Shown here: positions 1 through 51,137 of the stretch, piece by piece
How the letters are laid out: every line of letters begins with the position of its first letter
Numbering within the stretch: the stretch's first letter is position 1
Source: Fistulifera solaris
Lineage: Eukaryota; Bacillariophyta; Bacillariophyceae; Naviculales; Stauroneidaceae
Direction: 5' to 3'
Assembly: GCA_030295235.1 (NCBI GenBank)
Contig: AP026126.1
Span: 1,674,001-1,738,000, forward strand
DNA: 64,000 nt
Program-made: the position numbers and the translations under genes
The notes under the pieces: model-generated
The model's database searches: none
The model's input: only the letters and a program-made list of their open reading frames with translations
What the model was told of the DNA's origin: nothing

Positions 1-821
1 AGGCGATCGGAACAAGGATGGATCGACAGAAGTAAGTGCATTTTTGTAGAAGCAATAACTCTAGACTCTAGACGACGAAATTTGCTGTCAAACACGAGTC
101 ACGAGTTCACCACTCTAACAATATCTTGCCAGATACAAGTACATCGTGAAGAAACTACCTGGTACCGGTCGAATTCCTAAACCAACTGCCTTTCAGACAT
201 AAGTCAACAATATCCGAGAAAAAAGCGTGGAACTATACTTTGCTATTTGCTCTTTTTGGCGGGGTTAAAGCCTTTGTGTTTATCAGGAACATTTGATATC
301 TTGTTAATGTTGCTCTCTTGTGATTTTCCCCGAAACAATCACGATCTCAATCAACTTCGTTCAACGAGAGACGGGAATTAATGCTCGATGGTTCATAGTT
401 CATATTCTTTTCAATGTTACCCACGACTGCATTTCAGTCAAGAATCATATTATTATTTGTTCTGAGACAGATTTCTGCCTTATCTCCGTTGCTACTACTG
501 TACGCAGTTTATTTAGGTGTTAGCTGTATTTGCAACACGCGACACTCGATTCTTTCCTTCGAAAATTCTTGCGCAACGTTACCTTCTTAATTCACTATAT
601 ACCCAAACTGTCGGCTGAATTTTACCACGACTGCATTTCAGTCATGAAATGAAGACCTGTGACGTGGTCGTCAAGCTGTGCGAAAGCAACAAAGGCGCAA
701 GTTATTCTTTACTTGTAAAACACAACAAAACACTACCGACTTGCATTGATAGCGTCATTAGTCTACAAGGTAGCGGCAGTTTACCATCGCTCCTTCTCTT
801 TCAAGGACAAGCATCAGAAAC
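1..821. other. Intergenic, no gene recognised
   Basis: No convincing coding region is visible. The stretch holds one TACCTGGTA motif (156-164) and two copies of the 16-mer GACTGCATTTCAGTCA (425-440 and 629-644). The second copy lies about 180 bases before the GGCT-like gene. A coding tail entering from the left edge cannot be excluded. Confidence 0.5.
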
Positions 822-1793
822 ATGCATAGGATAGTATGCGGGTTGCTATTCGCGATAGCGACGACTTTTTCATCGGCTCTGAGCAAGAAATTTCTTGAAC
901 GGCCAACTTACGTCGTCGATCGTCTAGCTCAAAAGAAAACCATGTATTATTTCGGAATAGGATCCAATATGTTGCGATCCAAGTTGGAAAACAGAGGTCT
1001 GAACGGATCAAAGATTGATATCATCGATATGGAGCCAGGATACGTGCCGAACTACCGCCTTGCTTTCAATATGCGCGGGTTTGCCCCTCTGGAACCTGGC
1101 ATGGGATCATTGGAACCCATCAATGGAAGCAGACCTCTACTGGCTTACGATAAGCCAGAATGCCATGGTGCTTTGGTTACATTGACGGCCGAAAATTACG
1201 AAAAAGTCATGGCCAGCGAAGGTGTAAGCTTCAACCAAACGAACCCTGGTTATGAGGAAATCGTGGTTACAGTCATTCCATACGATACTCGAAAGGGCCC
1301 AGTGGAAGCCATCGCGCTACGAGCACGCTCGCACGTGAGATTACGGAAAGATCCTTGTCCTTCAGAACGCTACATGAGCATGCTTCGTGAAGGCGCTAAA
1401 GAATTAGGATTGCTGCCATCCTATCAAGAGTTTTTAAGACAACATCCAACTCAATTCGTTCCCGTGTGGCTTCGAAAAATTGCCATCCACAACTTCATCG
1501 CTACATTCATGATCTCGTCCTTGCTGAAATGGCGAGGACTGTCTCACACACAAAGTCTATTGCTATTCGCGGTATATGTTCCCTCGAACGCACCCAGAGT
1601 AGTGACCAGCTTGAGCCACCTTGCGAGTTCGTTCATACTTCTGCCTGGAGCTATGCTCGGAGCTTTCATTCAGTTCTATTTAAAAGTATTCAACAAGCAA
1701 CCTCCTCCATTTGTAAACAGATTCATCACGTTACTGAACACACCAAGTACAGAGAACCAACCCGTTAAACGCCAAGTCACTACAGCAACATAG
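822..1793 (+). CDS. Secreted gamma-glutamylcyclotransferase-like protein
   Basis: A 323-residue intronless ORF. The first 20 or so residues form a hydrophobic signal peptide (MHRIVCGLLFAIATTFSSAL). At residues 41-50 sits MYYFGIGSNM, matching the YxxxGSN substrate loop of the GGCT/AIG2 fold. A Glu near residue 133 (MASEG) is in the region where the family places its catalytic acid. Known relatives cleave gamma-glutamyl amino acids to 5-oxoproline. Residues 224-290 are an extra hydrophobic tail, perhaps one or two membrane segments, not part of the core fold. Together these suggest a membrane-attached protein of the secretory route. The exact substrate cannot be read from the sequence. Confidence 0.75.
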   Translation: MHRIVCGLLFAIATTFSSALSKKFLERPTYVVDRLAQKKTMYYFGIGSNMLRSKLENRGLNGSKIDIIDMEPGYVPNYRLAFNMRGFAPLEPGMGSLEPINGSRPLLAYDKPECHGALVTLTAENYEKVMASEGVSFNQTNPGYEEIVVTVIPYDTRKGPVEAIALRARSHVRLRKDPCPSERYMSMLREGAKELGLLPSYQEFLRQHPTQFVPVWLRKIAIHNFIATFMISSLLKWRGLSHTQSLLLFAVYVPSNAPRVVTSLSHLASSFILLPGAMLGAFIQFYLKVFNKQPPPFVNRFITLLNTPSTENQPVKRQVTTAT

Positions 1794-1835
1794 TGGGATC
1801 GCTAACTATAAAATCTCGTTTTTAATGCAAGAATA

Positions 1836-3133
1836 CTACACTTTCAGAGCTTGTTCAATGTCAGCCAGAATGTCATCGATGGACTCGATGCCAACACTCA
1901 AACGGATCATTCCTGGAGTAATTCCAGCTTTGCGCTGTTGTTCTTCGTTCATTTGCGAATGCGTCGTCGTAGCAGGGTTGATCGCCAAGGATTTTGCATC
2001 GCCTACGTTGGCAACATGACTGAATAATTTAAGACTATCAATGAATTTTCTCCCGGCCTCCGATCCACCTTTGATTTCAAAGACAACCAACGAGCCGCCT
2101 TTTCCGTTCAAATACTTGAGATTGCGATCGTACTCATTGTCGCCAGGAAGACCAGGGAATTTGATCCATTCAATATTAGGATGGTCCTTCAAGAAATTGG
2201 CAACTTTGAAGGCATTTTCGCAATGCCGGTCCATACGCAGAGGAAGCGTTTCTAGCCCTTGTAAAAACATCCAGCTGTTGTCAGGGCTGATGCACGCACC
2301 AGATTACGCAAGGGCACCGTGCGCATGCGTAGTATGAATGTCAAAGGTAACAACTGTTCGGGCAAGTCAATCCCCCATCGCAAACCACCATAGCTGGTGT
2401 CTGGTTCCGTAAAGAGAGGATGCCTTCCGCCAGCCCAGTTGAATGGCTTAGTAGTAACAATGCCACCAATGCCAGTTCCCTGTCCTCCGCTCCATTTGGT
2501 GAGCGAATGAACAATAATGGTGGCACCGTATTCAAAAGGAAGGCAGAGATAGGGTGTGGTGAAAGTATCGTCGACGATCAACGGCAAGCCGGTCTCCGAA
2601 GCCAATTGGCCAAGCTCTTCCAAGGGAGAAATCTCTAGCGCAGGATTGCTAACAGTTTCGCAAAAGATAGCGCGTGTCTTGTCATCAATAGCGGCCTTGA
2701 CGGCTTCGAGATCTTGAATGTCAACAAACTTGATCGTGATTCCGAACTTGGGCAAGATATCGTTGAACATTGTATACGTGCCGCCATAGAGGTTCTGAGC
2801 AGAAACGATGTTGTCGCCTTGTTCCGCAAGATTGATGATAGTGTTGTGGATGGCAGCACTTCCAGACGCGAACGCCAAACCCGCCATCTCGTGAGTCCCT
2901 TCGAGTAACGAGAAGCGCTTCTCTAAGATATCCGTCGTTGGGTTGGTCAATCGCGTGTAAATGTTTCCCAGTTCCTGCAACGCGAATAGTTTCGCCGCAT
3001 GGTCGGTACTTTTGAAGGCGTAAGGTGCCGTTCGGTAAAGTGGAACGCCTCGGCTTGTCGTGGCATCGGGCAGATAGCCACCGTGCAAACAAATGGTTTC
3101 AAATCCTTTCACAAGATCGGTATCTTTCGTCAT
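1836..3133 (-). CDS. O-acetylhomoserine sulfhydrylase-type PLP enzyme (one-base frame break)
   Basis: Cys/Met-metabolism PLP enzyme of fold type I. It starts MTKDTDLVKGFETICLHGGY and contains the PLP-lysine motif SLTKWSGGQG. The second half resumes in another frame with MFLQGLETLPLRMDRHCENA and ends GIESIDDILADIEQALKV. Relatives of this type make homocysteine from O-acetylhomoserine and sulfide. The break lies near 2299, where the family has RNLGACISPDN. One extra C on the plus strand (CC to CCC) restores it, so an assembly indel is likelier than a pseudogene. There is no N-terminal targeting signal, so cytosol is inferred. A cystathionine gamma-synthase-like role is less likely given the length and the C-terminal motifs. 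Confidence 0.85.
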
Positions 3134-4121
3134 GACGTTTAGTCGAGTGCAGAAGGCTTCTTCAAGAAAAAGGTGATGATAAGGACGTCAATAAGCTAAG
3201 CGCTCAGTTGTACGAAGAACAAACGCTGCAAGGTTACTTTGTAATGAAAGATAAGCAAGATATGCAACTGCAAAGGCTACCTGGTACACGACTGGCCCAC
3301 AAAGAATCATGCGGAACACACAACATCAAAGTTCGAAGATCCTTTCGAAAAGATCGCAAAACAAAAGTCTTGAATTTTCAAAATCCTACGGGACTGGATC
3401 AAGTCACGGAAATATAGGCCACGTGCTATGTAAATCTGAACGTTTGGTTTCAGTACTACCTGGTAGGGCTATGCAGACACAACGGATGTAAACACTTGAA
3501 TTACTCTGTCAACAGTTCAAGTGCAAAATTTGACACGCAAAACCGCATACCATCCCATTAGGATTATGATGGCAGTTGCTGTTCAAACTAGGTCGTGCCT
3601 GCAGGACATTTCGTATTGCTTATATTTTTGACGCCTTTCTTTGCGCATTTTTCTATCCACTAGATCGACGACCTCCACATAGATATCCTCCTAATTCTTA
3701 GCGGTTCGTGAGCGAATAGGATCATTCAGTAGAAAAGACTTTCGAAGATCTGGACCAATGTTTTCAAAGCCGAATATTGCATTTTCAAACATCAAAAACA
3801 CCGCAGCAAAACATGCGACTTTATGGCACGTCAGCCATCCTAGATATTGGAAAGGCCAAGGGCAGACCGAGATTCGGGAAGTAATGAGACAACGATATAT
3901 CAACTCAATGAACAAACATAATTTGGTTGATTGCATGCTATCGCTCATCTTCTATTGACGCTTTTCGCTGGAAATTGTGGATACACAACCGTTTGTTCTG
4001 ATGTGATATATTGGAGAAGTTCTGTTGCCAGCTGCGTCATGATCGGCCTGCCTCCACTATTCCATTGCTCGTAAAGTCGAGATTTCGCATTCGCGACCAC
4101 TAACAGGGATTAAGACAAAAT
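3134..4121. other. Intergenic between convergent-side ends, no gene recognised
   Basis: This is the 5' flank of the sulfhydrylase gene and the 3' flank of the lipase gene. It contains two TACCTGGTA motifs (3278-3286 and 3457-3465) about 180 bases apart. Short overlapping ORFs at 3691-3958 show no recognisable protein features. Confidence 0.5.
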
Positions 4122-5327
4122 TCAGTGAATGAGCTTGAAATAGGCTGCGGCAAAGCACTGTAGCCCATTATTCTGACACTTACAGACTGTGTGCCCGAAA
4201 GGCATGTACAACTTCCTCTTCTGTTCTATCTGTTGTGAGCCATACAATCGCAATAAATCAGACGAACTATGCCAGTCGCCTACCACATCACCCCGAGCGT
4301 GCGAGGTATTAGCCAGAATTGGAGGCAAGGGAACGGCTAGGACGTGCTCTCGGACATCACAGAACACTTTGGTCCATCCCATTTCATCCAGAAGTAAGGC
4401 CATTTCCCTTATGGAAATCGGTTTCGTCATGGTCGGGTACTCCATATCGTTTCGCCGAGCGGTTTGCGCCCGAAACACCTCATGTGGCATATCCGTGGAC
4501 GTGGGTAGTCGGTAATGATTGATCTCTGAGCTATCACATAAGAATCCAGCCGTGGGTGTGGGCACTTGAAAGTCAGTATTGTGAGCATTAATATACGCCA
4601 GTCGGGTGGAAAATTCCCGGAGAGGCTCGACGAAACGACGCTCTGTAGTCATTCTGTCGATTGTGTTGGAAATGCGGAAAAGGTCACGTCCAGTTCCCAT
4701 CATAGTGCGGGCGATGAACTGCTCCAGTAAGCGTGGGATCGGCCAAAATGTATGTTCGCTGACACCTAAATGCGGGGTAGCTATGGTACAAAAGACACTC
4801 GGTCGAATTTTTCCTTCTCGGATTGCCGATATTTCCGATAGAACGTAACGTGCATAGAGACCTCCCAAAGAATTTCCTACAAACGACAACGAAACTTGTC
4901 GCTTGTCATTCTTCTGAATGTCGGCAAGAATTCCATTTACCTCTACTGCTACGCGACCGCCTCCAGCCGCTATTCCGTCCATCGTATTTCCATCATTTGC
5001 CTTCGCGCTGTGTACAACAAAATAGGTGGATTGATCCGTGTCGTGATGAGCTTGTGCGAGTTGATTCAACGTCGTCTCCAAAAATCGCAGTTCCGAAGGA
5101 TTACCCATCCAGCCGTGGACCAGAATGATAACATGCACTGTTTCAACAGATGATGGAACTTTCACAACATTTTGCATATCTTTTTGTTGGTTATTCCAGT
5201 TCAGAGAAAGGGATTTCGCCGTAGTAAATGCACAGGTGAACATGAGAAGAACAGCTGCTACCGAAACATTCATGACGGAGAGATTGTTTATTACGTTCTC
5301 ATGCCACCAAGCAAACGAGACGATCAT
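4122..5327 (-). CDS. Secreted serine esterase/lipase, DUF676-like
   Basis: A 401-residue alpha/beta-hydrolase. HVIILVHGWMGNPSELRF is the oxyanion-hole strand, and SFVGNSLGGLYARYVLSE carries the nucleophile elbow GNSLGG. This matches the putative serine-esterase family DUF676 and its lipase relatives. ATPHLGVSEHTF follows, as is usual there. A candidate catalytic His lies near the C terminus in PFGHTVCK. The second Met (residue 19, coordinate 5273) begins a better signal peptide (MNVSVAAVLLMFTCAFTTA), so translation may start there. The product probably enters the secretory pathway. The lipid substrate is unknown. Confidence 0.8.
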   Translation of the reverse strand: MIVSFAWWHENVINNLSVMNVSVAAVLLMFTCAFTTAKSLSLNWNNQQKDMQNVVKVPSSVETVHVIILVHGWMGNPSELRFLETTLNQLAQAHHDTDQSTYFVVHSAKANDGNTMDGIAAGGGRVAVEVNGILADIQKNDKRQVSLSFVGNSLGGLYARYVLSEISAIREGKIRPSVFCTIATPHLGVSEHTFWPIPRLLEQFIARTMMGTGRDLFRISNTIDRMTTERRFVEPLREFSTRLAYINAHNTDFQVPTPTAGFLCDSSEINHYRLPTSTDMPHEVFRAQTARRNDMEYPTMTKPISIREMALLLDEMGWTKVFCDVREHVLAVPLPPILANTSHARGDVVGDWHSSSDLLRLYGSQQIEQKRKLYMPFGHTVCKCQNNGLQCFAAAYFKLIH

Positions 5328-5669
5328 ATAAATGACGAACGATTGGGATCGAAAGGCATGAAATGAAACGTTGGAATCTTCTTGATACGTAGAATGATGA
5401 TAGAAATGATCGCAAGGTCAACAAATGAAAACGAAAAAGCCTGGTGATGCATATTTGCGTTCGTTAATACCTGTACAGAGCCGTCTGTCATCCGCACCTT
5501 TGCGTCCGCTCGACGACGACTTTTTACTCGAGACGCGGGTGTGTTTGTCGTGTGCGCTGTTTTGACTTTAATTATGTGAAACGAATTGTGTTGCAAGCAT
5601 TTCAAATCGTCTTCATTTCCTTTGTTCAACCGTTTTCAATCATCATTTCCTATCAGATTTCCTTGCAAG

Positions 5670-6083
5670 ATGACGGATATGTACGACGATCCAAAAGTCT
5701 TCGAGGGAAAGTTAAATGCCTACCAACACGAAGACCGCGGTGTAGAGGTAAAGTGCTTTTCCGTTTTCTGTTTATGCGCGTGACAAATGTAGAAAAACAA
5801 GGCAATTCATGTTTCGTGTAAACTGATCTCAAAAATATTCGTATTTGTTTCACAGAGAGGACGTGCGAAAGACCCAGTGGCTTTTCTACAGTCCGTAGAG
5901 CAACGAGCTCGTGAACGTCAAGTCGCTTACGAAACCGTCAAATTATTGCGTCAGAGGGTCATTCATTGCTACCGCAAGGAAGGAGTGAACCACTATGAGA
6001 AATGTAAAAAGGAGGCTCAGGATTTGTACAATGTCATTTCCCAGAAAGATCTTGGTCAGCTTCAGCCGAATCAGACGAGCTAA
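5670..6083 (+). CDS. NDUFB10: Mitochondrial complex I subunit NDUFB10-like (2 exons)
   Basis: Exon 1 is 5670-5747 (26 codons, starting MTDMYDDPKVFEGKLNAY). A phase-0 intron with GTAAAG at the donor and TTTCACAG at the acceptor follows, then exon 2, 5856-6083. The protein has about 101 residues. KDPVAFLQSVEQRARERQ and CYRKEGVNHYEKCKKEA match the plant and animal PDSW/NDUFB10 family, whose hallmark is the spaced Cys pair around G(V/Q)NHY. Known relatives are accessory subunits of the membrane arm of NADH:ubiquinone oxidoreductase, facing the intermembrane space. The start was chosen because it gives an open, family-sized product. Confidence 0.85.
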
Positions 6084-6794
6084 TTGGGTTGTTAGAGAGG
6101 GATACAAATCCAACTAATGAAATGAAATTTTTAAAAGCATATAACTACAATCGTCCAAATTTTCTCGTTTTATTACATCTCGCTGCTTCACTGTCAAGGA
6201 CCTCAACCGGATCTTTCAATAGGAAGGAGGAGTTTTACGCTGTAGCACGCGTCTGTGATTTCAAACCACTGGGAATATCCTCTAGTCAATCAGCAAAAGC
6301 TGCTCCTCCAATGATCTAACTTGCCAGGAAGTAGGAGTATTGTCTCAAAAGAGATACGGAGTAGTAAAGTGCTAGAATTCAACGGATTCCAAACGGCAAG
6401 AGAAATTTAACCTACTCAGCATTCATTCTGCTTTGTATTTTTTCATCTGAGAGCGCATGAATCATCTATACCGGTCGCAATCGCAAAGGCATCTTCCTAG
6501 TCCTCGCTTAGACAATAATTTGTGCGAAGACACAATGACCTGTGAAACATCACGAGTCACGAGATGACCGTCACGAGCCAGATGGTTGGGACGCATCACT
6601 ACCGAACGCTATCCCTAGTAAAGTAAATGCAAGTACAATGTTTGTGACTTGTGGCATACCTTTGCAACTGCAACACAGAAAACGGAAGGCAAAAAGCGTC
6701 CTCAAAAATGAGCGGTGTCAACCATTTATTTCCTGCCCTCAGCACTTGCCAGCAACGAATGGTTCAAAGTAATTGAACACAAAGCGATTCAAAC
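6084..6794. other. Intergenic, no gene recognised
   Basis: This is the 3' flank of the NDUFB10 gene and the promoter side of the protease gene. Short ORFs at 6089-6319 and 6542-6772 show no family resemblance. CACGAGTCACGAG near 6548 also occurs near position 94. Confidence 0.45.
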
Positions 6795-10737: not shown

Positions 10738-11000
10738 ACTGAACTTGTTTTGATTTCCATATTATTTTACATTGTTTAGAGCGGCTAAACTTGGGCGAAA
10801 GTATAAAACGCCGATGGATTGTAAATAGTGTACCCGTCTTATCGGTATCCCTCAGTCGCCTCGAAATTGGTGCGGAGCGAAAGTGCTTTTCACTGCAAGT
10901 ACATTATTTCAATTGTTTCATTTATTTCGTGTTTGTCTTGCATCGTTGAGCTTTTCTTTACCAGGTATCGTATCCTTTTATTTGATGCTCAGTCGTCGAT

Positions 11001-11261: not shown

Positions 11262-11429
11262 GCAATGTCTACAAGAGCCACATTTGAAAGACTACGTGGA
11301 AAGGGCGATACCTGGTATGCCCCTCATATGGCATTAGACCGGACGGAATTGCAGATTATTCACTATCTTCTTTCGAAATTGGCATCAAACAACCGCTCAA
11401 GAAAAACAATTACTTGATTTAGACATTTT

Positions 11430-13689: not shown

Positions 13690-15467
13690 CAAAGGTCGGG
13701 GAAGAAAAGAGTCAAAAGAAACACCAAATAGAAACAATTTCCGACAGTTTATAGTCAGCTGTTTATTTGAACATCCGAAGAATTATCAATGTCCTTTGTC
13801 ATCCTTTTCATGATCGAAGTGACATGTCATTTTCATCTTTTTTTCTTGTATGGCTGATTATCTTTATTTCACCTTTGTCTGAATCCCGCTTTTCCTGTTT
13901 GTCCTTCCGTGCTAGTTGACTTGTTTCTTCCCAACGACGACTCCAAAAAGATTCAAGTCAAACTCTCCTTTGCGAAAAATACCGCCCTCCTTTTGGAAAT
14001 CTCTTTCGACGCTCCTTTTTCGTGAAGTGGACAAGCAAACTTTCGTTCCCCGTCCACAATGGGAATGTATCCTTTCTTGCACGGCGTGAATGGGAGCGTT
14101 TCACCATTCCCAAATCGAATGGACGCATCACGAATCGCTCGACCTGTAGGCGTATATCAAACACCGCAGTTGTGTGAGTAGGACAAGGACAAGAGACGAC
14201 TACTTATGAATAGAAGTATCGCTGCTGTCACTTGCCTTGTGGTGTCATATCGGCCGCACTGGATTGTGTGTAATGCGCTCCCCCGTAAAGGTCGCCTGAC
14301 GAGGTAACAAGACAGAAGCAAGGAGGAGTGTTTGTGAACAAATAGCTTCAAGGTGCTTTCGCTACTCATGTCAGTCTTACCTCGATCTGTCGGATATCCG
14401 CAAACATGTCCCCAAGGAACGCTCTCGATGACACTCGCCTGAATCAAGTATCATTCACTGGGTAAGATGCCACAATCATTGCGAAACGCACTTGTGTCGC
14501 CGGGCTTGGGGCGATGACAATCTTGTTTGTTTTGCAACTGAAGCACGTCAGACAAGAGCTTTCGCTTGTGTGTAAGACGTTGCGATGTTCGTCTTGGTTC
14601 CATTTTCGATTGAGATGAGAGGAGGGACATTAAAGATTATTGGTTCGTTGGCAAAATGCACTTGGGAAACTCTTCTTTGGCCAATCTCTTGTCCTTCTCT
14701 CAATGAGAAAAGTTACTAAGAAGATTAATGTTTGATCAACAAGAGAGAAAGGACAATCTACTGACGGTGGGGGAAATTGTGTACTTTCGCGGAGGCCCCC
14801 GTAGAGAAATGTACCAAGCAGAGGTGCGTTCCCGTGTCTCCCAAAAGAAAATTGATGTTGTTGTTTTTACTTGCCGAATTACTTTGTATTTAACGATAAC
14901 GTTAAATCATTGATTAAGTATATATTTTATTCCTAATTTTTTAATCGTCAGAATCTAATCTTGACATTCGACTGAATTTTCCACTTTGTATTTAAATTTA
15001 ACTCTTGCGTGAAAGAGCACAGAAAATCTTGGCGTGTGGTGTTTTCACGTACCCAAATAATCTGGAAGTGTAGTGTTGTTACGTACCCAAATAATCTGGG
15101 AGATTGGTGTTTTCACGTACCCAGAAAATATGGGAGTGTGGTGTTTTCACGTACCCAGAAAATATGGGAGTGTGGTGTTTTCACGTACCCAGAAAATATG
15201 GAAGTGTAGTGTTGTTACGTACCCAAATAATCTGGGAGATTGGTGTTTTCACGTACCCAGAAAATATGGAAGTGTGGTGGTTTCACGTACCCAAATAATC
15301 TGGGAGTTTTGTGGTTCAGTGTATTTTGTTTCGGTAGGAGGAAAAAGCAAGAATGTTCGCTTTTTTTCTCCACTTTGCGAATAAATGACAGCGTCAAACA
15401 ACAATAATTTGATGATACTACGAAGGAATAATAATTGAGTCTTGTCGTCAATCAGCAGCATTTCAGA
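13690..15467. other. Long intergenic spacer ending in a minisatellite
   Basis: No gene is recognised in about 1.8 kb. Short ORFs at 13958-14447 and 14728-14913 lack family features. The last part contains the 34-bp tandem repeat listed separately. The spacer lies between the oxygenase gene and the ABC-class ATPase gene, both on the plus strand. Confidence 0.5.
15032..15310. repeat. 34-bp tandem repeat, 8 copies
   Basis: The hexamer GTACCC recurs at 15049, 15083, 15117, 15151, 15185, 15219, 15253 and 15287, exactly every 34 bases. Two subtypes alternate irregularly: copies 1, 2, 6 and 8 have CCAAATAATCTGG, and copies 3, 4, 5 and 7 have CCAGAAAATATGG. Because 34 is not a multiple of three, the repeat is open in several frames without being coding. 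It ends about 160 bases before the ATPase start codon. Confidence 0.9.
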
Positions 15468-19878: not shown

Positions 19879-20578
19879 TCGTTTTACGTTTGCTTGTCAA
19901 TGTAAGTGAAAATAAACAACTTATGGTAGTCTAAAATGTTCGCAGAAGTGAGAATGCTCAATTCGAACAAATGTGTCAAGTGTCAACAAAGCAAAAAGCA
20001 GCGTTTTCACGTCGAAAAAAAGCAGCTACCTGGTAAAGGAAATCCTGTCGACAGATGGAACCCGGATATTGGTTTAGTTGACATCATCCATTTTTCGGGT
20101 ATGATTGACTGCAATGCAATCAAACCTTTCGCCAACATCGTTAGTTTGCAACAATGAACGATGTTCACAAACAAGTCGAAGTCAAAACGTAGATAATAGC
20201 AAAATACGACGCTTCGAATGTCTACGTGAAATTGACGTAGCCCCCGTAGGAATGCTATCGATGTAGGTAGTCATCGATTTCGATGTCATCAATTCTCGGG
20301 TCCCACAGCAACAAATCTCATTATTTATAACTATTCTCGACATACCTTTGTTGAGATTACAAGCAAGAATCGACGTATCAATTGGAACACCCAACATGAA
20401 AACGACAACAGATGCTATGTTGCGAATTTCTACTCGGATTTTACGTAGGCCGCGTACCAGGTAGGGAAATTTATCGACGGAGGCGAACCCGGATATTGTG
20501 TATGAGCAATTCCTTCACTCCGTACCAGTATCATTATTTTTCCAATCTCATTATCTATACGGCTTGTTATTTACTTCA
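19879..20578. other. Intergenic with a repeated TACCWGGTA-led segment
   Basis: No gene is recognised. Two related segments of about 50 bases start at the TACCWGGTA motifs at 20027 and 20455. Both continue into TCGAC.GA.G and then share GAACCCGGATATTG. This divergent spacer separates the CCDC6-like gene (minus) and the proteasome-like gene (plus). Confidence 0.55.
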
Positions 20579-25345: not shown

Positions 25346-26236
25346 TTGTGATTTGGATGCGCAATGAAAGACCCGGAACACGCCACGGCCCGGCGGCTGA
25401 TTCTATCGAGAATGAAGATTGTGACGCCTTTTCTATCAAACGGATTCTCGGTGCTATTAGAAAAACTTTCCAGATATGAGGCGGTCGATGTTGAAGCTTT
25501 ACTAAGTATTTTATCGTTACCAGGGGTTTTAAGCTTCGTTGAGATTGTCTCCATTTTTAGCAAACGTTTTCCATAGCTGCCAGCTACGGCCGGCAGCTGC
25601 CATGTCGTACCAGTACCAGTATCAGTAGGCGGCCTACGAGATTTCCACGTATGCATTCGAAGTGTTGTATCTTTGCTTTTCCTGTGTTTGATGTTCCAAG
25701 TAATGTCAATTCTTGGTAAGGGGCTCTATAAATGTATGTTGATGAATGTTTTGAGCTTCGTTGAGATTGTCTCCATTTTTAGCAAACGTTTTCCATAGCT
25801 GCGAGCTGCCGGTACCGAACCTGGTACAGATTACAGGAAAGGACGGTAGGACGTTAAAATTCTGCCTCTTGTACAAGATTCTACGTAGCATCTACGACGA
25901 GGCAGAATTTTACCTTCATCGACATTTTGTCCTCTCAATGTCCGTCAGACGCACGGCGAACCTCTCATCCATTCAACTTTCAACATCTCGCCTTTTGAAA
26001 GAAAAGATCTTCACCTCACACCATGGTCGAGGAGTCAGTCCATTATTAAATCAAGCATTTCACCCAACTCACACATCATGACAAGTTGCTTGTCGGTCGT
26101 TAAGTTCTGTTTGAGATAGCCTCTTTATCCCACGCTCCATTCCTTTCTCCTGACATCCTAGAGTGAGAAAATCAATAGCCACACTCTGTGCCATCAAAAG
26201 AATAAGACGAAGAAAACGAACTACTCCGTATCACAA
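25346..26236. other. Intergenic with a 60-bp direct repeat
   Basis: This divergent spacer separates FBPase (minus) and TRM7 (plus). Two 60-base copies beginning GTTTT(A/G)AGCTTCGTTG lie at 25526-25585 and 25748-25807, with two mismatches. A GTACC-rich patch (25605-25630) and CCGGTACCGAACCTGGTACA (25809-25828) flank the copies. ORF 25761-26081 (106 codons) shows no family resemblance and begins inside the second copy. Confidence 0.55.
25526..25807. repeat. Direct repeat pair, 60 bp, 222 bp apart
   Basis: Copy 1 is at 25526-25585 and copy 2 at 25748-25807. They differ at two of 60 positions, and sequence outside them is unrelated. They share GAGATTGTCTCCATTTTTAG and CAAACGTTTTCCATAGCTGC. No flanking target-site duplications are obvious. 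Confidence 0.85.
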
Positions 26237-31353: not shown

Positions 31354-31971
31354 TGTATCAGAAATCCCAGCAGACAGCGGCAATCTCAGTTGAGCTCGCG
31401 TTGATCAGCAGCGGTTTGTAGAACCTGTTGATGCAATCAGAGACTATGCAACAGGATTCGCCGTCGAATTCAGGATGTTCCTTTCCGCTGTATGATACAC
31501 ACTCGCTTCCGTTACTGTGTTTTATGACGATCATCGTTTGAAATCGCGTCGCGACGCAATCGGCGCATCAAGGCGAAGAGGATCCCAATTGGATTTAATT
31601 GCTTGATACCAGGTACCGTACCTGGTAATGAGAAGAAGAAAAAGAACGGTTTTCAATTTTTGCCGATCGTTTTTCCAATGCTTACCGAAGCGACATGACC
31701 AGCAGATCGACTTACTTGGATGCTAGAATTGTACTCCGTACCAGGTACCGTGCCGGTACCTGGTACCAGTACGGCACGGTACCAGTATGCGGCGGCATGT
31801 TGACAAGACTTCCGTCAGGCGTCGGGTTGATTTCGTCATTGCGTCTCTTTCGCGTGTCTCATCCATCGGAAATTCGAAAATGATACGGAGTACTGTAGTA
31901 GATTCCTTCGACATGATTATTTATGAGATAGCCTCTAGAGCCGCTTGCTATTTTTAAAAGTTAATTTTAAT
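31354..31971. promoter_or_regulatory. Bidirectional promoter region with TACCWGGTA cluster and hairpin
   Basis: The MYB gene (minus) and NAP1 gene (plus) are divergent across 618 bases, so this spacer should hold both promoters. Four TACCWGGTA motifs lie here (31607, 31619, 31739 and 31757). Around the last pair, GGTACCGTGCCG (31744-31755) and its exact reverse complement (31772-31783) enclose a 16-base loop containing the palindrome CTGGTACCAG. The sequence proves the structure; a promoter role is inference. Confidence 0.55.
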
Positions 31972-37392: not shown

Positions 37393-37441
37393 CAATAGAC
37401 CAACGCAACTTCTTACCGTCTACTTTTACAAATTATATTCC

Positions 37442-38506: not shown

Positions 38507-41500
38507 GGTCCGATTCAGGATACAATGGGGCAAACTCTGTCTCCCGAATCACAAAATGTTCTGAATAATAATAATCACTATCGTTTTCTTTCTTATGAAC
38601 GTGGCGAAATAGTAGATCTCTCTAGTAGAATTGCAACAAATGCAATGGGAGTGTGATAGAGAATCATCTCATCGCGGTCACTCAGACGCAGACACGCAGA
38701 CGGGCTACACATCGAAAGACTGCGATTGAAACAACAAGTTTGGAACAGTGCGCATAATAATGCGACGCAAACAGAAACAAAACAACATCTCACCATCATC
38801 ATCGTCGAGGCACAAAAAGTGCCTCCAATGGATTCGACATCCATTATTTTCTCCCTGGTCAAAATTGGATTTCAAACGCGTATTCCGCTTGTGTGATACG
38901 AGCAGGCTGGGCTCGCAGCTGCGTTTATCATTATTGAAAATATAAAGATGCGTATACTGTGACATTCATTCGTGGGTCGTGGGATCCCAGCACATGGTGA
39001 AAACCGTTGCTCGGCACAGGAATACTTAGAGAGCTCCCTCTAAATAATTTTAAATGAAGTTTGTGAACACAAACTGATTTTGATTTTACGATAGGAGTAG
39101 CATCGCTGAATTTTTGTTTCCCTCTTTTTTCGCTGCGTTCTTCTTCTCACATCTCCTCTCAAAGGCGACTGAGAGAGGTTTGATGTCCTCCCCGTATTCA
39201 GTTGTTGCCAAAGCTGTGGCCTGCGATCATAGCTTGGGACCGTATGGTTGAATACTCAGTGGGAGCGCATGAAGGGTTGTGGTGCGTATGTCCCGAGGAA
39301 GGAGGAGTCGTCTCGCGAAACGGCAACCACGTGTCGTCTCAACGATTCGCTTGCCTGTTTGCGAGGCTTCCTGCCTTACCGGAAAACACGCAGTTGGAGC
39401 ATTGTGCTGGGAAAAGTTCTTCACCTGAGTTGTGGGATCCATGAGGCGTGCCGAAGAACTGCGTGCGCCGATGATTGGTGAAGCAATGGTAACGGTTGAG
39501 CGGGGTTTGGGGTTCACCCGCTGAGCAGCTTATGAAAGCCACATTCGCCTTTCCGCTCCCAACCGGATACATGGGCGTTTGTGATCGCTTGTTGACATCT
39601 GCTTAACGTCTTCGGAGCTCTTGCGGTGCTTATGAGTTATCCTAGAAATAGGTTAGCGGTTACGGGCACTAGCAAGGGTCCCCCATATGTCCCAGCACAA
39701 TGAAAAATGTATACCACAACACCTTCATGCTAACACTTGTTCATTTCAAAACCAAATAATTTTAATTAATATATAAAATACAACTGATGGATGCGCGCGA
39801 TGGGTAATGGTGACAGAGGAGCTCCTCCATCTAACACTGTCCAATTTTGTGCGCTCAAGCGGTTTCGTGGTCGTGAGAATTGTTGTTTGCTCATATTTTC
39901 GCCACCGCCTCTTGTTGCGTCGTGCTTTATCTAGGATTTATTTTATTTTCGTTCCAAGAAGTCTTCAGGTTCGTCATTAAAGTACGAAACGGGCGAGAGC
40001 CGGTCCAACAGTCCTATCACCAACAAAGAGTCGACTTCGAAATGTAATGACAAACCAAAGCATTCAATACGTCATCCAACATATTTGTAAAGTCCGCAAC
40101 AGACCCATTGTGAACAATTTAGAAGCACTGTTTGGTTTCTTTGAGCTTCACGGTAGAATGGAACCTGTCTCTTTCTCTCGCGCCGCGTTTCGATGTCGCT
40201 CTCGAACTGATAAACAGGCACTCGGCTAGGCCGCCATCCAATTGGAATAAAACCCTTAAGCGTAAACAACATCTTGGGGGAAATGGGGCTCTCCCGAGAG
40301 ACGTCGTGACACATTCAGCAAGTGAGGGGCGAATGGATTGGAGGCCACGCGTTTCTTCGCACGGAAATACATGCTGATTACATCTTTGACGCCAAGAGTG
40401 GTCAGATTTTCCAAATAAGTTTTGAAACTCCCATAAGCGCCAATTCAGAGGAACTATGAATGCTGGAATCTGTAGGGCCAAAGTGGAAATTTCTTTCGAA
40501 AAGTCGCCACGTATGCCACCGCGACCTTGAATTTCGTCCACCACCGAGCCTTTTATGACCACCAAGATAGCCATCTGGGCATGTTGCCGAGTGAAGAGAA
40601 GGACAGGCGCAGTATAATTCAAGCCGTTTATGAGGAATACGCTGCGCGCGGAATGGGAGCTGCAAGAGTAGCACGCGAGCTTCCCGCTAATCTAAAAGAT
40701 GCGTGTTCTACTATGATGCATCAAAACACAAGGACTCGACACCAAAAGAAGCACTGACCGTCGCGACGTTCACATTCTACTTGAGACCACGTTTGTTGCA
40801 ACAATGGCGGACCCACTGGAGATGATTGACAAATGGCACCACTCGGTCCGTTGCGAGACTCGCTATCAAGGCCGGGACAGCCCCATACCTCATGTTGGCT
40901 CAAATGCCATATTCATGAAATCGCACAACGAGGAACGTTTCGTTTGCATATTCTAAACCAAAGGGTCTGATACCGGCTTCTTGGCTCGGGACTATGAGAT
41001 GCGCGTCCACGGTAAAAGCGTATCGGTGCTGATGATAGTGAATATATTGGTAAACGAACCGAACAACCCAGAGCCCCACTTCCGATTCGGCATCTTCTAG
41101 AGGCTCTCTTTGCATAAAAATCGAAGTCTTTTCACAAATGCTATGATGTACCTGGTAAGAGAACAGGCAGATTGTAATTGCTCCAATGAACTGAGGATGT
41201 TATCAAATCTTTCCGCAACGAGTCGTCCATTTCAGAAATATGATTAGCATTACCGAGGAGAGAACAATGAGGGCAAGCAAAGCAGCTTCTCCGGGAAGTA
41301 GCTGCAGCCTTCCGAGGTGAATCATTTAGGGCGAAGGATGCCTTTGCGAAGACAGTAGCAACGGTCTCATCGCGATCATTCTTGCGATTCAGCACCCATG
41401 TGTTGGATATCAGCAACCATACGGAGTACAAGATGGGTGAAAAGAGAGCACCAATTCGGACTTTTCGCAATAGAAAATTCAGCATCTTGAAATTGTTGAA

Positions 41501-42711
41501 GAATCCCAAATGAGCGTTGATTTGGTCTTTGTGTTGCTTTTGTACCGCTATTGTCCTCACAACAACTCACCAGACTTTGACGTTAATGAACGAGATATCA
41601 CGGCTCATAACAATGGGTATAGCATTCGTCTGACCTTCTTTTTCTAGACCGTTCGCTTTGTGTGATAGTAAATCAAAGTGTATACGGTGTTTCCACCATG
41701 GGACTTGCCAATTGTATTCGAACTAAACTCTGTCACAAATGATGTTCCATGGCGTTGGTGGCGGTAATAAATATGACTGCTACCGCTGTGTAACGTTGTT
41801 TCGGCGATACAGAGTCAATTGTCACGGTACATTTTACAAACGCTCGATTCCCATTACAATACGATCGGTCCTTCCACAGTACCCTAAAAAAATGATTGCA
41901 AAAGAGGCCCGGTTGGTAATGTGCGTCTACCAATGACCCCGGTGGTTGAATTTGGCTTATTCAACGTATTTGAAAGGTTGTTTGACGTCTTTGGGTCGAT
42001 TCAATTTGGCTTCTTCGAGTAATCGAATGAGCGGATTGCGACGTCCAGTGCACGATTTTGTTTGGACGTTTCGACGGGATGTTTTCAACCAATTGGCTCA
42101 ATAATTGACCCTGATTATGTTGCACTTCGACAGACGGCGCATCGTACAACATAATCTGCATCGTACGGTCCATCAAAAAATCAAAAACACTTGAGAGAGA
42201 GACGAAGATTTGACGGCGCGATCGATGTATGAACGGTCAATATCATTTTCTGCATCCTTTTTGAGTTCATTTCTAGCACAAACATGACGAATGCAAGAAA
42301 GTACTCCGTACCAAAGTTAAAGAAAGAAGGTTGGTGAAGAAATACTTGTTGTATACCTGGTAGTGTGACGAAAATGCGAGTGTCGATACTCCTTTGAATG
42401 ACACGTCAAACATCATAACAATAACAAAATGCGTCGTTTATGTATAAACGGGTGTGACTATGTAATTGTTTGTCTTCGTTCGTCGTACCTGGTAATGTAT
42501 CAGTCATCCGTCATCCGTCAGTGAGGAGTCATCAGTCATCAGGGACAGGGTTATTCTTTTTCATAGTGGCCGTAACCATAGCTGTACTGGGACTGTGACT
42601 GGGAAATTTAATGAGGGTAAAAGCTGCTACAACTACAATTACATAATTAGCTTCGACGCAAAAAGGAGGACACGGACGATTTTACCTGATAGCGACAAAA
42701 AATCCAGCTTC
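38507..42711. other. Gene-poor 4.2-kb region
   Basis: No gene is recognised in either strand. Small ORFs such as 40119-40622 (minus) and 41141-41560 (minus) have odd composition and no family match that I can see. TACCWGGTA motifs occur at 41149, 42354 and 42486. A short TCATCCGTCATCCGTCAGT tandem lies near 42508-42540. A non-coding RNA or old repeat could hide here, but the sequence gives no clear sign. Confidence 0.45.
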
Positions 42712-43854: not shown

Positions 43855-43925
43855 CACTAATAATTGATAATGTCAACTAGGAAAGACATACAACATTCAT
43901 TACGTATTTCAAGAACTGGTCGACA

Positions 43926-45676: not shown

Positions 45677-46281
45677 GATACTATTAATTATAAACGTTAG
45701 TAAGCGAATGAAAAGAAACTATGAATCCAACTTTGAATCTCTATCGGGCTCTCGCTTTATGGCGGACGAGAACGGAGGTCGATGTCGATCCAGCGTTTGT
45801 CGGAGTCGAGGATGCTTCTTCGTTTCCTTACTAACTTTCATCACCCAGCCGGCTGGCGGGAAGACGTTCTACGGTAATTTCGGTACTAACTGTGCGTAAA
45901 CTCCACAATGATCAATCTTGCGTGTTTATCGTGAGTCGTGCGGACTACTCTTGTCGTGGAACTACTTTCTATTGATAGTGAAAGCGCAGGTCACACCTAT
46001 TTTCCATGTGCCGAATTGTGTTCTAACCTGCTACTTAAGGCCAAACTACATGTTCATTGTTCAATCATGAATAGTTGTAAATCTTTTACATAGAGCGTCA
46101 CCTCCTCCACCTCCCATTTTGCTAAACACGTTCTCCCGTCACATTTTCAAGGTTTTCTTTTGCCAACAAGTACAAAGTAACAACCCAACAAAAGGTTCGA
46201 CAGCAGCGTCCAGCAGGGAAATTTTACAGCGTATGACTTATTATCTTTACAATTTCTTTCCACAACTTGCTAAAAAAGAAG
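45677..46281. other. Divergent promoter region of two paralogues
   Basis: 605 bases between the start codons of membrane proteins A (minus) and B (plus). No coding feature is recognised; the ORF 45561-45899 only overlaps the 5' end of A. The head-to-head layout suggests an inverted duplication and perhaps shared regulation (inference). Confidence 0.45.
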
Positions 46282-48904
46282 ATGGCTCCGGATGACAACA
46301 GTTCGGTAGGTGCACCAATCGTCAAATGGGATACGTTTCGATCTTTTTCCTCACTTTATTCTCTATATGCTTTTTTCGTCTTTCAGCGAGTCGAATCAAA
46401 TCTTGCGATGCGTAAAGCGCCAAGGTAAGAAATTGGCAGAAGACTCGACTTTGTTGGCTCATCTGTGCTGAATCTTTGTTCGTTTTTTTGCTTTGCAGAT
46501 TCGGCCATACGAGGGAGTTTGCCGCAGTCGTTTCGGAAGAGAGCCGCGACGAATACATCGACGGAGTAAGTTTCATAGGGAAAATTTATGTCTTTAATAT
46601 CTAAGCTCATGTATGTTCCAGCTTGCTGCCTTCGCAGTTTTTATTTTCGCTTTCACTTTTGTTTGGTTGGTGATAATCTTTCTCTTCAAATTTCACTACG
46701 GTGTCGACCGCGTTGGATGGGCTGCCGGTGGGGATGTTGTTGATGTAGAATATCTGAGGAAGCAGGGAATAAGTCGGAAGCACAGAACACAACGAATTCA
46801 TCGCAACTGGCGCGTGCAATCTACCTTTTGATTGCCTCAATGTGCATACCCGTCCTCTCATTTTTATTGGTGAATCATGGACTAGAACCCTTCATCGAAA
46901 GCTTGATGGATATCGAAGACATGACCAACGATGTTGCTACACAAGCTTACATTGGAATTTATACCGGACAACAGATCGACACAATATACAACAATTTACG
47001 GAATCTAGTCTCTCATAACGTCACAACTTTATGTCCCGATTTCCCTTCCAGTCTTTTGAATAATGAAAGTCGATTCACCGTTGCTCATGAGGACTTATCG
47101 AATTCGTTGACCTCTCTTCTACCGGTAGTCAATGAAACAATTCCAATTACCGTCGAAGTGCTTGAAGCAGTGACAACAGCAACGAGAAAAGCAGAAGATA
47201 TTGTTGATATCATTCGCAGTCACGACTGGCTATTGATCCTCCTACTGGCCGTTCTTAATATCATCAATGCTTTCTTCCTATTCGGTGTATTTCTGACGAA
47301 AAATAATGTGGGCTTTCCTGTGCTTCAAGCGTTTACAGGCTATCTGCTGGTTCCTTCATTTCTTCTTGTCTTGTTGGTGTTTGTCTGCGCGAGTGGTCTC
47401 TTCGCCGCCGCCGCCATTTCAAATGCAGGTGAGTCGTTCTAAGCTGAATGTGAAGCGAAGGCAACTTTCGATCTAATCGATCGCTTTGCACTGTTTAATT
47501 AGATTTCTGTTCCGGGGGATATGGTGTTCCAAATCCAATCGGTACATTTCGTGACATTTCAATTAGACTCGGTTACAAAGACAACAGCGTCCCCTTGACC
47601 GCTCTCGAATATTATACTTCTGTACGTATACCTTCTTGTGTTCCTTGAAACCATTGAATGACACTCATCCATTGGTTTCGCTTCAGAACTGTCGCGCTGA
47701 ACATCCGCTAGCGCTCATAAACGAGGCAAAACGATACGTTGAGATGTCCACAATCCGTTTTGATCAGCTTTCGGATGCTCTAAAGTCAACGACGTGGGAA
47801 GAGGTTCCCGATGGATGCGAAGTGCGATTCCCATTTTCCAACTCGTCGTTTCATGAAATAGCAGATAATCTGGGGATGTTGCAAGACAATTTCAATCAAG
47901 TATTAGAACTGACTTCTTGTTCCAATATGCGACCGATCTTTCATTATCTTTCTTCCGGTTCAATCTGCACCGAATCCGTTAGTGGATTAAGTGTTCTCTT
48001 CGCGCTCACTTCCGCAATTTCTGTGTTAGGTCTGGTTTTGCTGACGACACGGGCGGCCATTTTTAACCCTATAATCAAAGCAAGGCGCATTAAACGGAGA
48101 GAGAAAGAATTCAATGAATATAAATGCTACATGGCGAGATACTACGATACAGATACATGGAAAATGGACCCGCCAAAACCTTTCGAAAATGACATCATAT
48201 GCTTATCAACGATGGAGTCTGACGACACATCCCCTCGATCATTTCTTACAGATTCAGACGGTACCACAGTTGAAACGAAAAGTTCCATCGTGCAACACAG
48301 TGAGGAGACGTTGAACCTTTCGTTGCAGTCTGATGGTAAATTCTTCCGGAAAAGTCAGTTCTATCACGGAGAAATCGAAGTCATCTACTATTCTTCGGAT
48401 TCAGACTCTGATGACGAAAACGGTGAATCGGTCTCTATTTCAAGGAGCTTAAATTCTAGCATGTCTACCTTGTCTGGGCTTCTCTGGAGTTCAGGGAGAG
48501 CAACGGCGCAATACAATAAAAGTAAATCAGAAACGGATCCACAAGCTTGTCCAACGGTAAAAGCATCGGATGTAACCGGAACCACTAGGTCAAATAATAT
48601 GCGTCTGTTCTTTGGGACTGGTCCGCCTTTACAGAGTCCAAAGATGGCAAAACCAGAAGTACAAGAGCCAAGTCTGCATATAAGCGTCCCATTAGATCAT
48701 GATGTTCCGCATCATGATATTACAAGCAATCCTCTTAGCCTCGGAAATATGGAAGTGTCTATCGACGACTTATTTGATGATTCTTGTGACCATCCCTTTG
48801 CTGAGGCTCCATCTACCCCTGACGCACCACAAAAGAAAGTCAGCGCAGTTGCAAGAACAGCCGGTGCTCGAACCATTGAGATCCGTGTGAAAAATCAACC
48901 TTAG
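46282..48904 (+). CDS. Multi-pass membrane protein B, paralogue of 43926-45676 (6 exons, one-base frame break)
   Basis: Exons 46282-46305, 46387-46424, 46499-46565, 46622-47428, 47503-47621 and 47687-48904. All junctions agree in phase. Membrane segments include FAVFIFAFTFVWLVIIFLF, YLLIASMCIPVLSFLLV, WLLILLLAVLNIINAFFLFG, LVPSFLLVLLVFVCASGLFA and LSVLFALTSAISVLGLVLL. The spliced block DFCSGGYGVPN, then ALEYYTS|NCRAEHP, aligns with DFCLPKDQN and EFYITNCQTRDP of protein A. Exon 4 changes frame near 46818; one extra A in AA gives RNWRVQIYLLIAS, which aligns with RSTRVRIWFLLCS of A. The C-terminal 250 residues are cytosolic-looking, with an acidic Ser cluster (SSDSDSDDENGES). Confidence 0.7.
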
Positions 48905-51137
48905 CGCAATGGCGAAACTCTGTATTTAGTAAACTCAATCCTTATAAGACAACCTATGTTGACTCTAGACTTGATGAGAGACAGCGAGACTCATTCCATA
49001 CAGGTGCCGAAAAGCTGAAATGAAGAAACAAGCGCAAGTGGCGACCACTGTTACCGTCGTATGTTTCTCAGCAATTTTCTCGTTTATTGGTGTCCCCTTA
49101 CTTTTGAAAACTGCGAGGTCCAAGACATTACACCAATGCCATGCAAATGTCTTTGGTTGGGAACAGATTCATTGAACGAATCATGTCTATCGATTATACC
49201 CCGCCATCTTTTCTTGATCTTCGGAGCGATGTCCAAAGAGAGCGGCTACTATTCAGCCTCGTGTTTGACAAGTCCTTCCGCTTAGCTAGCGCCGAACTCA
49301 TCTGTAGTTAGCCCTCTTTTGGGATAGTCGACCCTCTTGACAAGCCAGAGATTTGACTAAAACTGGAACGTTGAGTCGTCAAAAGAATTAAAGACTCGTC
49401 AATGCGCGTACGGGTCCTTGTAAGGAAGCACGACCACGTTTATACCAAGCGGGCTGTCGTACGCTCTAAATTGCTATTTGATCCAAAATAAAAGGCGTTT
49501 GCGCGGCCATTGGCGAAGGACAAGGAAAAGGCCAAGCACTTGTTGTGTTGTTTTTCCTCATGGTTCTGTGGTGATCCGGAGTGATTCAAAAACTATGTTT
49601 GTTCTGTGGACAAGAGGATGTATTCCTTGCTCGGGATCAGTGTGTCATTTTTAGTAATTATGTTCATTACCGACGGACACCAATCATCAATATTTCGTAA
49701 ACCTCTGACGAGAAGGTCTAGATTGAGTGTGAATGCGAGAAAGTTTGTTAAGCTGAGATAAAAGGTCAGGAAAGTTTTATGCGTCAATTTGAAGCGCCAT
49801 GACATGTGGAGAGCCAATAGCCCTATTCGTCCAATACTACCACACAACGGACGGGTAGCCTTTCAAATACCGCCACAGTACCTGGAGAATAAGAAGATAA
49901 ACAAAAATTCATATCGAAGACATCGAGTCATCGGTGGGGCGATACCGGTTGTCTACCAATTCTTGCGTGCTTGTGGCTGGCAACATCCGTATATCAATGG
50001 TCGAGTCCTTAGACTTCGAATGTAAATCGCTTATCGTACAAGTTGTCTTTCCCACAGAATTCGGAAACGCTGATCTATCTGCGAGTATACTTGATGGTAA
50101 TGGAACTCTTTCGACTAGCGTGGGAGACCTTGTGCCGTTATAAGCACTTGAACGATGCCATGAACGAAGCAGTTTTCTGAACCCCAGTGTGCGTCTTCTC
50201 ATGAATAAATGGTCAAGGTCATCTACGGAGTAAAAGAATGAAAGAGAATTTTTTCAAAAGTACAGCAAGGTTCTGATCACGCGGTTGATCACCATTAGAA
50301 TGTGTCCCGACGTCCCGACCTGTCGGCTGCGTCAAACGATCAAAAACTAATATCGTCGACCCAGCGTCACGAAAACAAATAGAAGTACGGTATCAAGCGA
50401 CTTTCGCGTCATTTTCCGCACACTCTAGGCATCCACAATTTGTCATTATTTCGGAAGATATCGATGGTCCTAAAAAGGCAACGAAATGTCGACTACTCCG
50501 GAGTATAATTTTTCATGGGCTACGTACGCATGGGCATTTTTTGCCTGAGAACACGGTTTGATGACAATAGGGAATACCTGGTAGGGATACAAAGTGCAAA
50601 GAAAGCTACTATCATGAAGCGGTACTGTACACATTTTGGCTTACATATCGCAGTGTGTTTGTAAATTGTCATTTTGGGTTCACGGACAGACTGGACAATC
50701 TTTAAGACTCGTGACAAAATAAGATAGAGTATCCGTTTACGGGACTCACTTAGCATATTCACAAAAACCACCTTATCAACGCGAATTGTTACCTAATCTA
50801 ATTGACATCGCAAAGCGTGGACACCAGATGATGATTAACATACAATTATGTATGATGTTGTTCTTGCTGAGAATGGATATAGGTGGACAGAGGACAGAGG
50901 ATTGTGCGTGAAAATTTAACTTGAACTTTAGTGTTGAATGATGAACTGGTGATCCTATTTTTGTTCATATTCATTCCATTCAAGTGCACTACCACGTACT
51001 TCCTAGACCATGAAATTATAAGGCAAACGCATGCGCAAACAGTCCTTTTCATTTTCAGGTTGTGGTTTTCTGATTGCTACTTTAGTATTTGGGAGAATTA
51101 TTGTGGAGTGCAAACAACACATCGATGTAATGCTGCA
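48905..51137. other. Intergenic, no gene recognised
   Basis: About 2.2 kb without a recognisable gene. One TACCTGGTA lies at 50575-50583. Small ORFs (49061-49285, 49593-50202, 50520-50771) show no domain. The frame of kinase 1 is open from 50931, but the 69 extra residues are not kinase-like. Confidence 0.45.

What the first reader, a model, noticed from the sequence alone, without database searches (positions are those of the whole stretch)
156..50583. TACCWGGTA is strongly enriched between genes
By eye I find 15 copies: 156, 3278, 3457, 10959, 11309, 20027, 20455, 31607, 31619, 31739, 31757, 41149, 42354, 42486 and 50575. About 0.5 is expected in 64 kb of random sequence, both orientations counted (the motif is its own reverse complement). 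None lies in a called CDS. It could be a promoter element, a replication or chromatin mark, or the end of a dispersed short element.
Basis: seen in the sequence. Interest (0 to 1): 0.75.

Follow-up and report, generated by a model that had tools for sequence, protein, structure and literature searches.

The report
Transposon scars between diatom genes
The repeated nine-letter word looks like the scar left when a jumping gene cuts itself out at a TA, and this diatom genome carries thousands of such words, sometimes several stacked at one spot.

Summary
All 15 TACCWGGTA sites are present (0.21 expected). The genome, Fistulifera solaris, holds 4365 against 328 for the reversed word; TACCSGGTA is near its control (349 vs 286). 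0 of 23 sites in 264 kb lie in ORFs of at least 120 aa, which cover 58%.

It is most likely not a promoter or chromatin mark. I could compare 22 loci with a homoeolog or paralog: in 10 the other copy has a single TA (once mutated) and lacks TA+CCWGG units by an exact or near-exact length; in 8 the word is absent without an exact length; 1 is shared but degraded; 3 are unclear. Units stack at one TA (26 bp = 5+7+7+7). The doubled word occurs 150 times (control 1); 22 of 50 listed are inverted, which tandem duplication cannot make. Other TA-C…G-TA words are enriched too (TACTCCGTA 2789 vs 312).

Best reading: excision footprints of TA-targeting cut-and-paste transposons. Five bases exceeds the 2-4 bp reported for Tc1/mariner. 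No intact element or transposase was found, so family membership is open.

The parts
156..164 (.). TACCWGGTA; absent in the C5 homoeolog, length difference not exact
134..141 (.). TACAAGTA, a 4-base module; the homoeolog lacks exactly TACAAG
3278..3286 (.). TACCWGGTA; exact 7-bp insertion at a TA
3457..3465 (.). TACCWGGTA; 7-bp gap at TA in the homoeolog, left flank diverged (scored unclear by the strict script)
10959..10967 (.). TACCWGGTA; 7-bp insertion at a TA
11309..11317 (.). TACCWGGTA shared with the homoeolog, which has lost one base of it: an older site
20027..20035 (.). TACCWGGTA inside a copy of a dispersed repeat; left flank diverged, empty state not exact
20455..20463 (.). TACCWGGTA inside a copy of the same repeat; other copies have a bare TA at that place
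31607..31627 (.). Stack TA-CCAGG-TA-CCG-TA-CCTGG-TA (two TACCWGGTA sites); homoeolog lacks exactly 19 bp, its TA reads CA
31732..31787 (.). Stack with TACTCCGTA and the sites at 31739 and 31757, plus TACCAGTA at 31764 and 31780; homoeolog not readable here
41149..41157 (.). TACCWGGTA; no alignable homoeologous DNA
42354..42362 (.). TACCWGGTA; no usable homoeologous alignment
42486..42494 (.). TACCWGGTA; no usable homoeologous alignment
50575..50583 (.). TACCWGGTA; no alignable homoeologous DNA
46171..46179 (.). TACAAAGTA, another 5-base module; homoeolog scored empty at TA
6355..6363 (.). TACGGAGTA, one of 7 TACTCCGTA-type words in the window (others at 26222, 31732, 31884, 41420, 42302, 50224); homoeolog states filled or unclear

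Best explanation
TACCWGGTA is an excision footprint. A cut-and-paste DNA transposon that inserts at TA and duplicates it leaves, when it excises, both TA copies plus a few bases of its ends, here CCWGG. Shown: at 10 of 22 readable loci the other copy has a single TA and the site is TA+CCWGG (or a chain of such units) extra; units stack at one TA in both orientations; other words of the form TA-C...G-TA are enriched and some behave alike; the words avoid ORFs. Inferred: that an element was once there and left; that its ends began CCAGG or CCTGG and were cut with a stagger (CC and GG of the overhangs pair, and an A-A or T-T mismatch in the centre is mended; or four bases of one end join one of the other); that several element families acted; that the scarcity in genes is mostly selection against 7-bp frameshifts.
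For: Exact or near-exact empty TA at window 3278, 3457, 10959, 31607/31619, 20455, C6-left 36202 and 72602, C1:671349/356, C1:1039906/913, C4:1100987-1101008. Unselected scoring: CCWGG 2 empty, 0 filled, 4 unclear, 10 not alignable; words outside CNNNG 3 empty (one event), 144 filled, 77 unclear, 105 not alignable. Doubled word 150 vs 1, 22 of 50 listed inverted. W but not S at the centre. TA-C...G-TA excess peaks at five bases: 87 vs 28.1 in C6, 25 vs 12.2 in C5. TACTCCGTA 2789 vs 312. 0 of 23 in ORFs. Order visible in copies: CCAGG alone on C12, CCAGG plus CAAG on C6 and C4; CCGG added to a CCAGG footprint on C4 but not C41.
Against: No TA-flanked inverted repeat with these tips in C5, C6 and ten further loci and no DDE_3 transposase in the genome; DDE_1 and Transposase_1 searches are uninformative. 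Five bases is longer than the 2-4 bp given for Tc1/mariner (PMC7913693). In 8 of 22 readable loci the length difference is not exact, 3 are unclear. For CTCCG 2 of 8 aligned sites are filled and 6 unclear. TA-Nk-TA words of all kinds are somewhat above expectation, and G...C words at four bases are 32 vs 15.0 in C6. With two copies alone gain and loss are told apart only by the motif logic.
Confidence: 0.85

Rival explanations
1. A promoter or enhancer element: a near-palindromic site for a transcription factor, spread by selection upstream of genes.
For: Intergenic only (0 of 23 in ORFs); divergent gaps hold 12 of 23 against 36% of background TA.
Against: Precise TA-to-TA length differences and stacking; 0 of 6 aligned sites intact in the homoeolog; 3 of 23 in convergent gaps as for background; unrelated words CTCCG and CAAAG between TAs are enriched as well. 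No expression data here.
Confidence: 0.06
2. Slippage or tandem duplication of a short GGTACC-rich repeat (microsatellite growth).
For: Stacks look repetitive; same-orientation doublets are 28 of 50 listed.
Against: 22 of 50 doublets inverted; single sites arise in unique DNA as one 7-bp gain; stacks mix modules of different sequence.
Confidence: 0.04
3. The word is ancestral and the other copy lost it by deletion between the two TA repeats (microhomology deletion).
For: Two copies alone do not show direction; TA repeats flank the lost part.
Against: Does not explain why thousands of copies of one word existed, nor chains removed down to one TA with modules intact on the other side, nor nested states in a repeat family with several copies.
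Confidence: 0.03
4. A DNA-methylation, replication or chromatin mark (CCWGG is also the bacterial Dcm word; recalled).
For: Dispersed and palindromic apart from the centre.
Against: The enriched unit includes the outer TAs and other five-base fillers are enriched too, which a CCWGG mark does not predict; not conserved between homoeologs.
Confidence: 0.02

Closest known systems
Tc1/mariner excision footprints (ZB, Sleeping Beauty, Frog Prince; PMC7913693, passages; Mos1, PMC2642840, one passage)
   Same: TA target duplicated; a few bases of the element ends remain between the two TAs. Sleeping Beauty's TAC(A/T)GTA (recalled) has the same form with a central A/T.
   Different: Reported range 2-4 bp (cuts two or three bases inside for mariner in vivo); here five bases dominate. 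No element or DDE_3 transposase found.
Stowaway / Osmar5 footprints in grasses (PMC1925063, passages; PMC4423477, passages)
   Same: TA plus short end fragments from both sides; reinsertion at a TA with an earlier footprint (Australopyrum). Mariner ends in rice start CTCCCTC, so TACTCC|GTA could be four bases of one end plus one of the other.
   Different: Those studies read one locus or tens of excisions with elements still present; here thousands of words and no element seen.
Passer, a pogo-type transposon (PMC9976928, passages)
   Same: TA-type cut-and-paste element with short footprints.
   Different: Footprints of 0-4 bp in cell assays; a DDE_1 search here could not be interpreted.

Membership tests
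Tc1/mariner-type excision footprint | TA target present once in the empty copy and twice around the scar | tested here: met
   10 of 22 readable loci exact or near-exact; 8 absent but inexact, 1 shared, 3 unclear
Tc1/mariner-type excision footprint | Scar of 2-4 bases from the element ends | tested here: not met
   CCWGG, CTCCG and CAAAG are five bases; excess peaks at five. Modules of three and four bases exist in stacks
Tc1/mariner-type excision footprint | Intact element with inverted ends matching the scar | tested here: not met
   None in C5, C6 and ten further loci, about 0.3 Mb of 51.7 Mb; the rest of the genome was not searched for this
Tc1/mariner-type excision footprint | DDE transposase of the superfamily in the genome | tested here: inconclusive
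   DDE_3 no match, control rang in 3 of 14 genomes; DDE_1 and Transposase_1 no match but controls rang nowhere; exon-by-exon search
Tc1/mariner-type excision footprint | Excision observed to leave this word | not testable with these tools
   needs an excision assay
Transcription-factor motif | Conserved at orthologous positions | tested here: not met
   0 of 6 alignable sites intact in the homoeolog; small number
Transcription-factor motif | Concentrated upstream of genes | tested here: inconclusive
   12 divergent, 8 tandem, 3 convergent of 23, against 36%, 51%, 14% for background TA; ORF-based
Tandem microsatellite | Units in one orientation | tested here: not met
   22 of 50 listed doublets inverted

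The most novel reading that the evidence does not exclude
A TA-targeting transposon lineage with a five-base cut, outside the known 2-4 range, repeatedly swept this diatom's genome, left thousands of scars that rank among its most enriched intergenic words, and has otherwise nearly vanished; because each scar holds two TAs, scars invite further insertions and pile up at the same spots.
Probability: 0.35. Interest if true: 0.75.

Novelty: new variant of a known kind. Interest (0 to 1): 0.6.

Why it matters
A motif finder would report such a word as a regulatory element, yet it appears to be a scar. If so, the genome keeps a countable record of cut-and-paste transposition without the transposons: each scar is one insertion and one excision, stacks give their order, and homoeologs date them. 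It also points to an unusual cut in a diatom transposon lineage, which an excision assay could test directly.

Tried and rejected
Subgenome marker: 15 sites in the window against 1 in the homoeologous 80 kb suggested that one parental genome carried the scars. Simple sites do not bear this out: TACCWGGTAAT has C1 21, C2 26, C3 24, C4 20 among the first 100 listed. Only the composite TACCWGGTACCG is uneven: C1 13, C2 52, C3 12, C4 23 in its first 1.19 Mb (list stops at 100). Homoeologous pairing C1/C2 and C3/C4 is, C5/C6. The local 15:1 is probably fluctuation plus clusters.

A longer inverted end read from 31607 and 31739 (CCAGGTACCG...) was dropped: both TACCAGGTACCG and TACCTGGTACCG occur widely and stacks resolve into TA-delimited modules. 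Target preference beyond TA: nothing strong in 25 simple sites, slightly more C at -3 and -2. Inverted-repeat scans gave no element with these tips; one weak CAG-tipped pair on C5 (13 of 22 letters) was not pursued, and one search returned only pairs of complete sites. An inverted-repeat element in L006 has an 8-bp duplication (read by eye), not TA. Transposase profiles. Rfam and tRNA scans of the window: nothing.

Literature: TACCTGGTA is in 109 papers, of which 15 titles were listed and none read; ACGGAGTACGGAGTA in none; mixed word and footprint searches listed no report of such scars in a diatom by title or abstract start. This covers only the held open-access library.

Full report
Source and counts. 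The window is C6:1674001-1738000 of a 51.7-Mb genome in 61 contigs. A glutamine cyclotransferase ORF in it is 100% identical over 90% of its length to FisN_4Lu515 of Fistulifera solaris, a diatom with an allodiploid genome (abstract start of PMC13276009, seen in the listing). The 15 sites are exact and complete. Genome-wide there are 4365 against 328 for the reversed word. With C or G in the middle the word is near its control, 349 against 286.

Window against its homoeolog. A 20-kb query located the homoeologous stretch on C5; I fetched C5:1766001-1846000 and C6:1554001-1674000. The long aligned blocks are 82-90% identical. At 3278 and 10959 the homoeolog has a single TA where the window has TACCWGGTA, a 7-bp difference; at 3457 there is also a 7-bp gap at TA, but the left flank has diverged. 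At 31607-31627 the window has TA-CCAGG-TA-CCG-TA-CCTGG-TA and the homoeolog lacks exactly 19 bp, its TA having become CA. At 11309 the word is in both, with one base missing on C5. Site 156 is absent in C5 but the length is not an exact sum. Sites 31739, 31757, 41149, 42354, 42486 and 50575 could not be read. Sites 20027 and 20455 have no homoeolog either, but lie in copies of a dispersed repeat: for 20455 other copies (C6 near 1,594,165, L003, L006) have a bare TA at the same place; for 20027 the left flank has diverged. The one C5 site (1913) is absent in the window without an exact length.

Further loci. Of the seven sites on C6 left of the window: 36202 is empty in C5 when the gap is shifted by eye; 72602 lies in a repeat family in which one copy (C4:794830) is empty, C12 copies carry CCAGG alone, and C6 and C4 copies carry CCAGG plus a CAAG module; 45089, 97406 and 105426 are absent in C5 without an exact length; 25573 is unclear; 108560 is not spanned. 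Eleven pieces from C1, C2 and C4 were used as a query; seven homoeologs and one paralog were fetched and aligned. C1:671349/356 has 26 bp more than C2 at one TA, reading CAG, AACCT, CCTGG, CCAGG, each behind a TA (5+7+7+7). C1:1039906/913 has two 7-bp units, with one neighbouring single-base difference. C4:1100987-1101008 reads as a 28-bp chain (CCAGG, CCGG, CCTGG, CCCTGA) against a TA on C3, beside a separate length difference upstream. C4:153925 against C41 shows CCGG added to a shared CCAGG footprint; against its homoeolog C3 it is absent but inexact. C2:1133972/993 is absent but inexact; C4:386256 and C4:648426 are unclear. For the other four pieces, for the seven C1 pieces and for two C5 sites no copy was found.

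Tally: 22 loci could be read. Ten are exact or near-exact TA differences (3278, 3457, 10959, 31607/31619, 20455, 36202, 72602, C1:671349, C1:1039906, C4:1100987). Eight lack the word without an exact length (156, 20027, 45089, 97406, 105426, C2:1133972, C4:153925, C5:1913). One is shared (11309). Three are unclear (25573, C4:386256, C4:648426). Several of the ten rest on my reading of an alignment, not on a score.

Unselected tests. In aligned window/C5 sequence each TA-N5-TA word was scored empty, filled or unclear in the other copy: CCWGG 2, 0, 4 with 10 not alignable; words outside the CNNNG form 3, 144, 77 with 105 not alignable, the three empty ones being overlapping readings of one event; other CNNNG words 0, 12, 11; CTTTG-type 1, 2, 2; CTCCG-type 0, 2, 6. 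At module length four two TACAAG words scored empty. Of 22 seven-base indels, 3 fit the TA rule, two of them CCWGG and one CACTT. The numbers are small but agree with the selected cases.

Other words of the same form. Ranking all TA-Nk-TA words in C6 gives CCWGG first (22, 0.58 expected), then CTCCG/CGGAG (13, 0.81) and CTTTG/CAAAG (11, 1.89); CTCCG leads in C5 (6, 0.34). All three are five bases long with C first and G last. Summed, TA-C...G-TA at five bases is 87 against 28.1 in C6 and 25 against 12.2 in C5; at three and four bases 37 against 27.7 and 43 against 28.9 in C6, at seven 37 against 28.8. The mirror class G...C is 17 against 14.9 at five but 32 against 15.0 at four in C6, and TA-Nk-TA words as a whole are above expectation, so part of the excess at four has nothing to do with C...G (20 resamples). 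TACTCCGTA counts 2789 (1364+1425) against 312 (155+157) genome-wide. For that word the insertion reading rests on single alignments: C5:55006, where shifting the gap gives TACTCCG, and C5:74461, where a 17-bp difference begins with it.

Stacking. TACCWGGTACCWGGTA occurs 150 times, its reverse once. Of the 50 places listed, 28 have the two units in the same orientation and 22 inverted (my count from the list). Tandem duplication makes only the first kind. In 20 stretches picked from the lists the modules in chains were mostly CCAGG (33), CCGG (17) and CCG (11); the set was chosen for containing the word and gives no frequencies.

Mechanism. A TA-specific cut-and-paste transposon duplicates TA on insertion. 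On excision the flanks keep their TA and a short overhang from the element tips. For tips CCAGG or CCTGG the overhangs pair as CC with GG and leave an A-A or T-T mismatch in the centre, which gives one word, TACCWGGTA. Joining four bases of one tip to one of the other would give the same length; the data do not choose. The scar holds two TAs and can be hit again. Passages read: Tc1/mariner footprints of 2-4 bp (PMC7913693); 0-4 bp for Passer (PMC9976928); end fragments next to the TA copies and reinsertion at an old footprint for Stowaway (PMC1925063); 3' overhangs from the tips, mariner tips CTCCCTC (PMC4423477); cuts two or three bases inside for mariner in vivo (PMC2642840). Five bases lies outside those ranges.

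What is missing. No TA-flanked inverted repeat with these tips was found in C5, C6 and ten further loci, about 0.3 Mb. The DDE_3 profile found nothing; DDE_1 and Transposase_1 searches cannot be read as absence. Intact copies may be few, or gone.

Position. 0 of 23 CCWGG, 0 of 19 CTCCG-type and 1 of 14 CTTTG-type sites fall in ORFs of at least 120 aa. Between ORFs, CCWGG is 12 divergent, 8 tandem, 3 convergent, against 36%, 51% and 14% of intergenic TA. This fits insertion in open DNA with loss from genes, and is only weak support for a promoter role. Some scars may since have gained a function; nothing here tests that.

Noticed in passing
61964-63065: Tandem array of an 18-bp unit, 59 copies (CCGACTATTGCAACATGT), within a long ORF 61827-63260.
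   Followed up: no
15020-15313: Minisatellite of a 34-bp unit containing ACGTACCC, related to many stretches on other contigs.
   Followed up: no
L006 180-1066: Inverted-repeat element with ends TAAGGACGTATAAAAATGTAAGGACG and an 8-bp duplication ACACCAAT, sitting in a copy of the repeat found at L003.
   Followed up: partly
window 20027-20500; L003; L006; C6 near 1594165: Dispersed, in L003 tandem, repeat containing GGAAATTTATCGAC...CCCGGATATTG; two window copies each carry a TACCWGGTA at the same TA.
   Followed up: partly
contigs C1-C4: TACCWGGTACCG is about four times denser on C2 and C4 than on their homoeologs C1 and C3, while simple sites are even: the CCG/CCGG modules may belong to an element more active in one parent.
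   Followed up: partly
C4:1446875, 1446950, 1447025: TACCTGGTAAT three times at 75-bp spacing: probably a scar copied within a tandem repeat.
   Followed up: no
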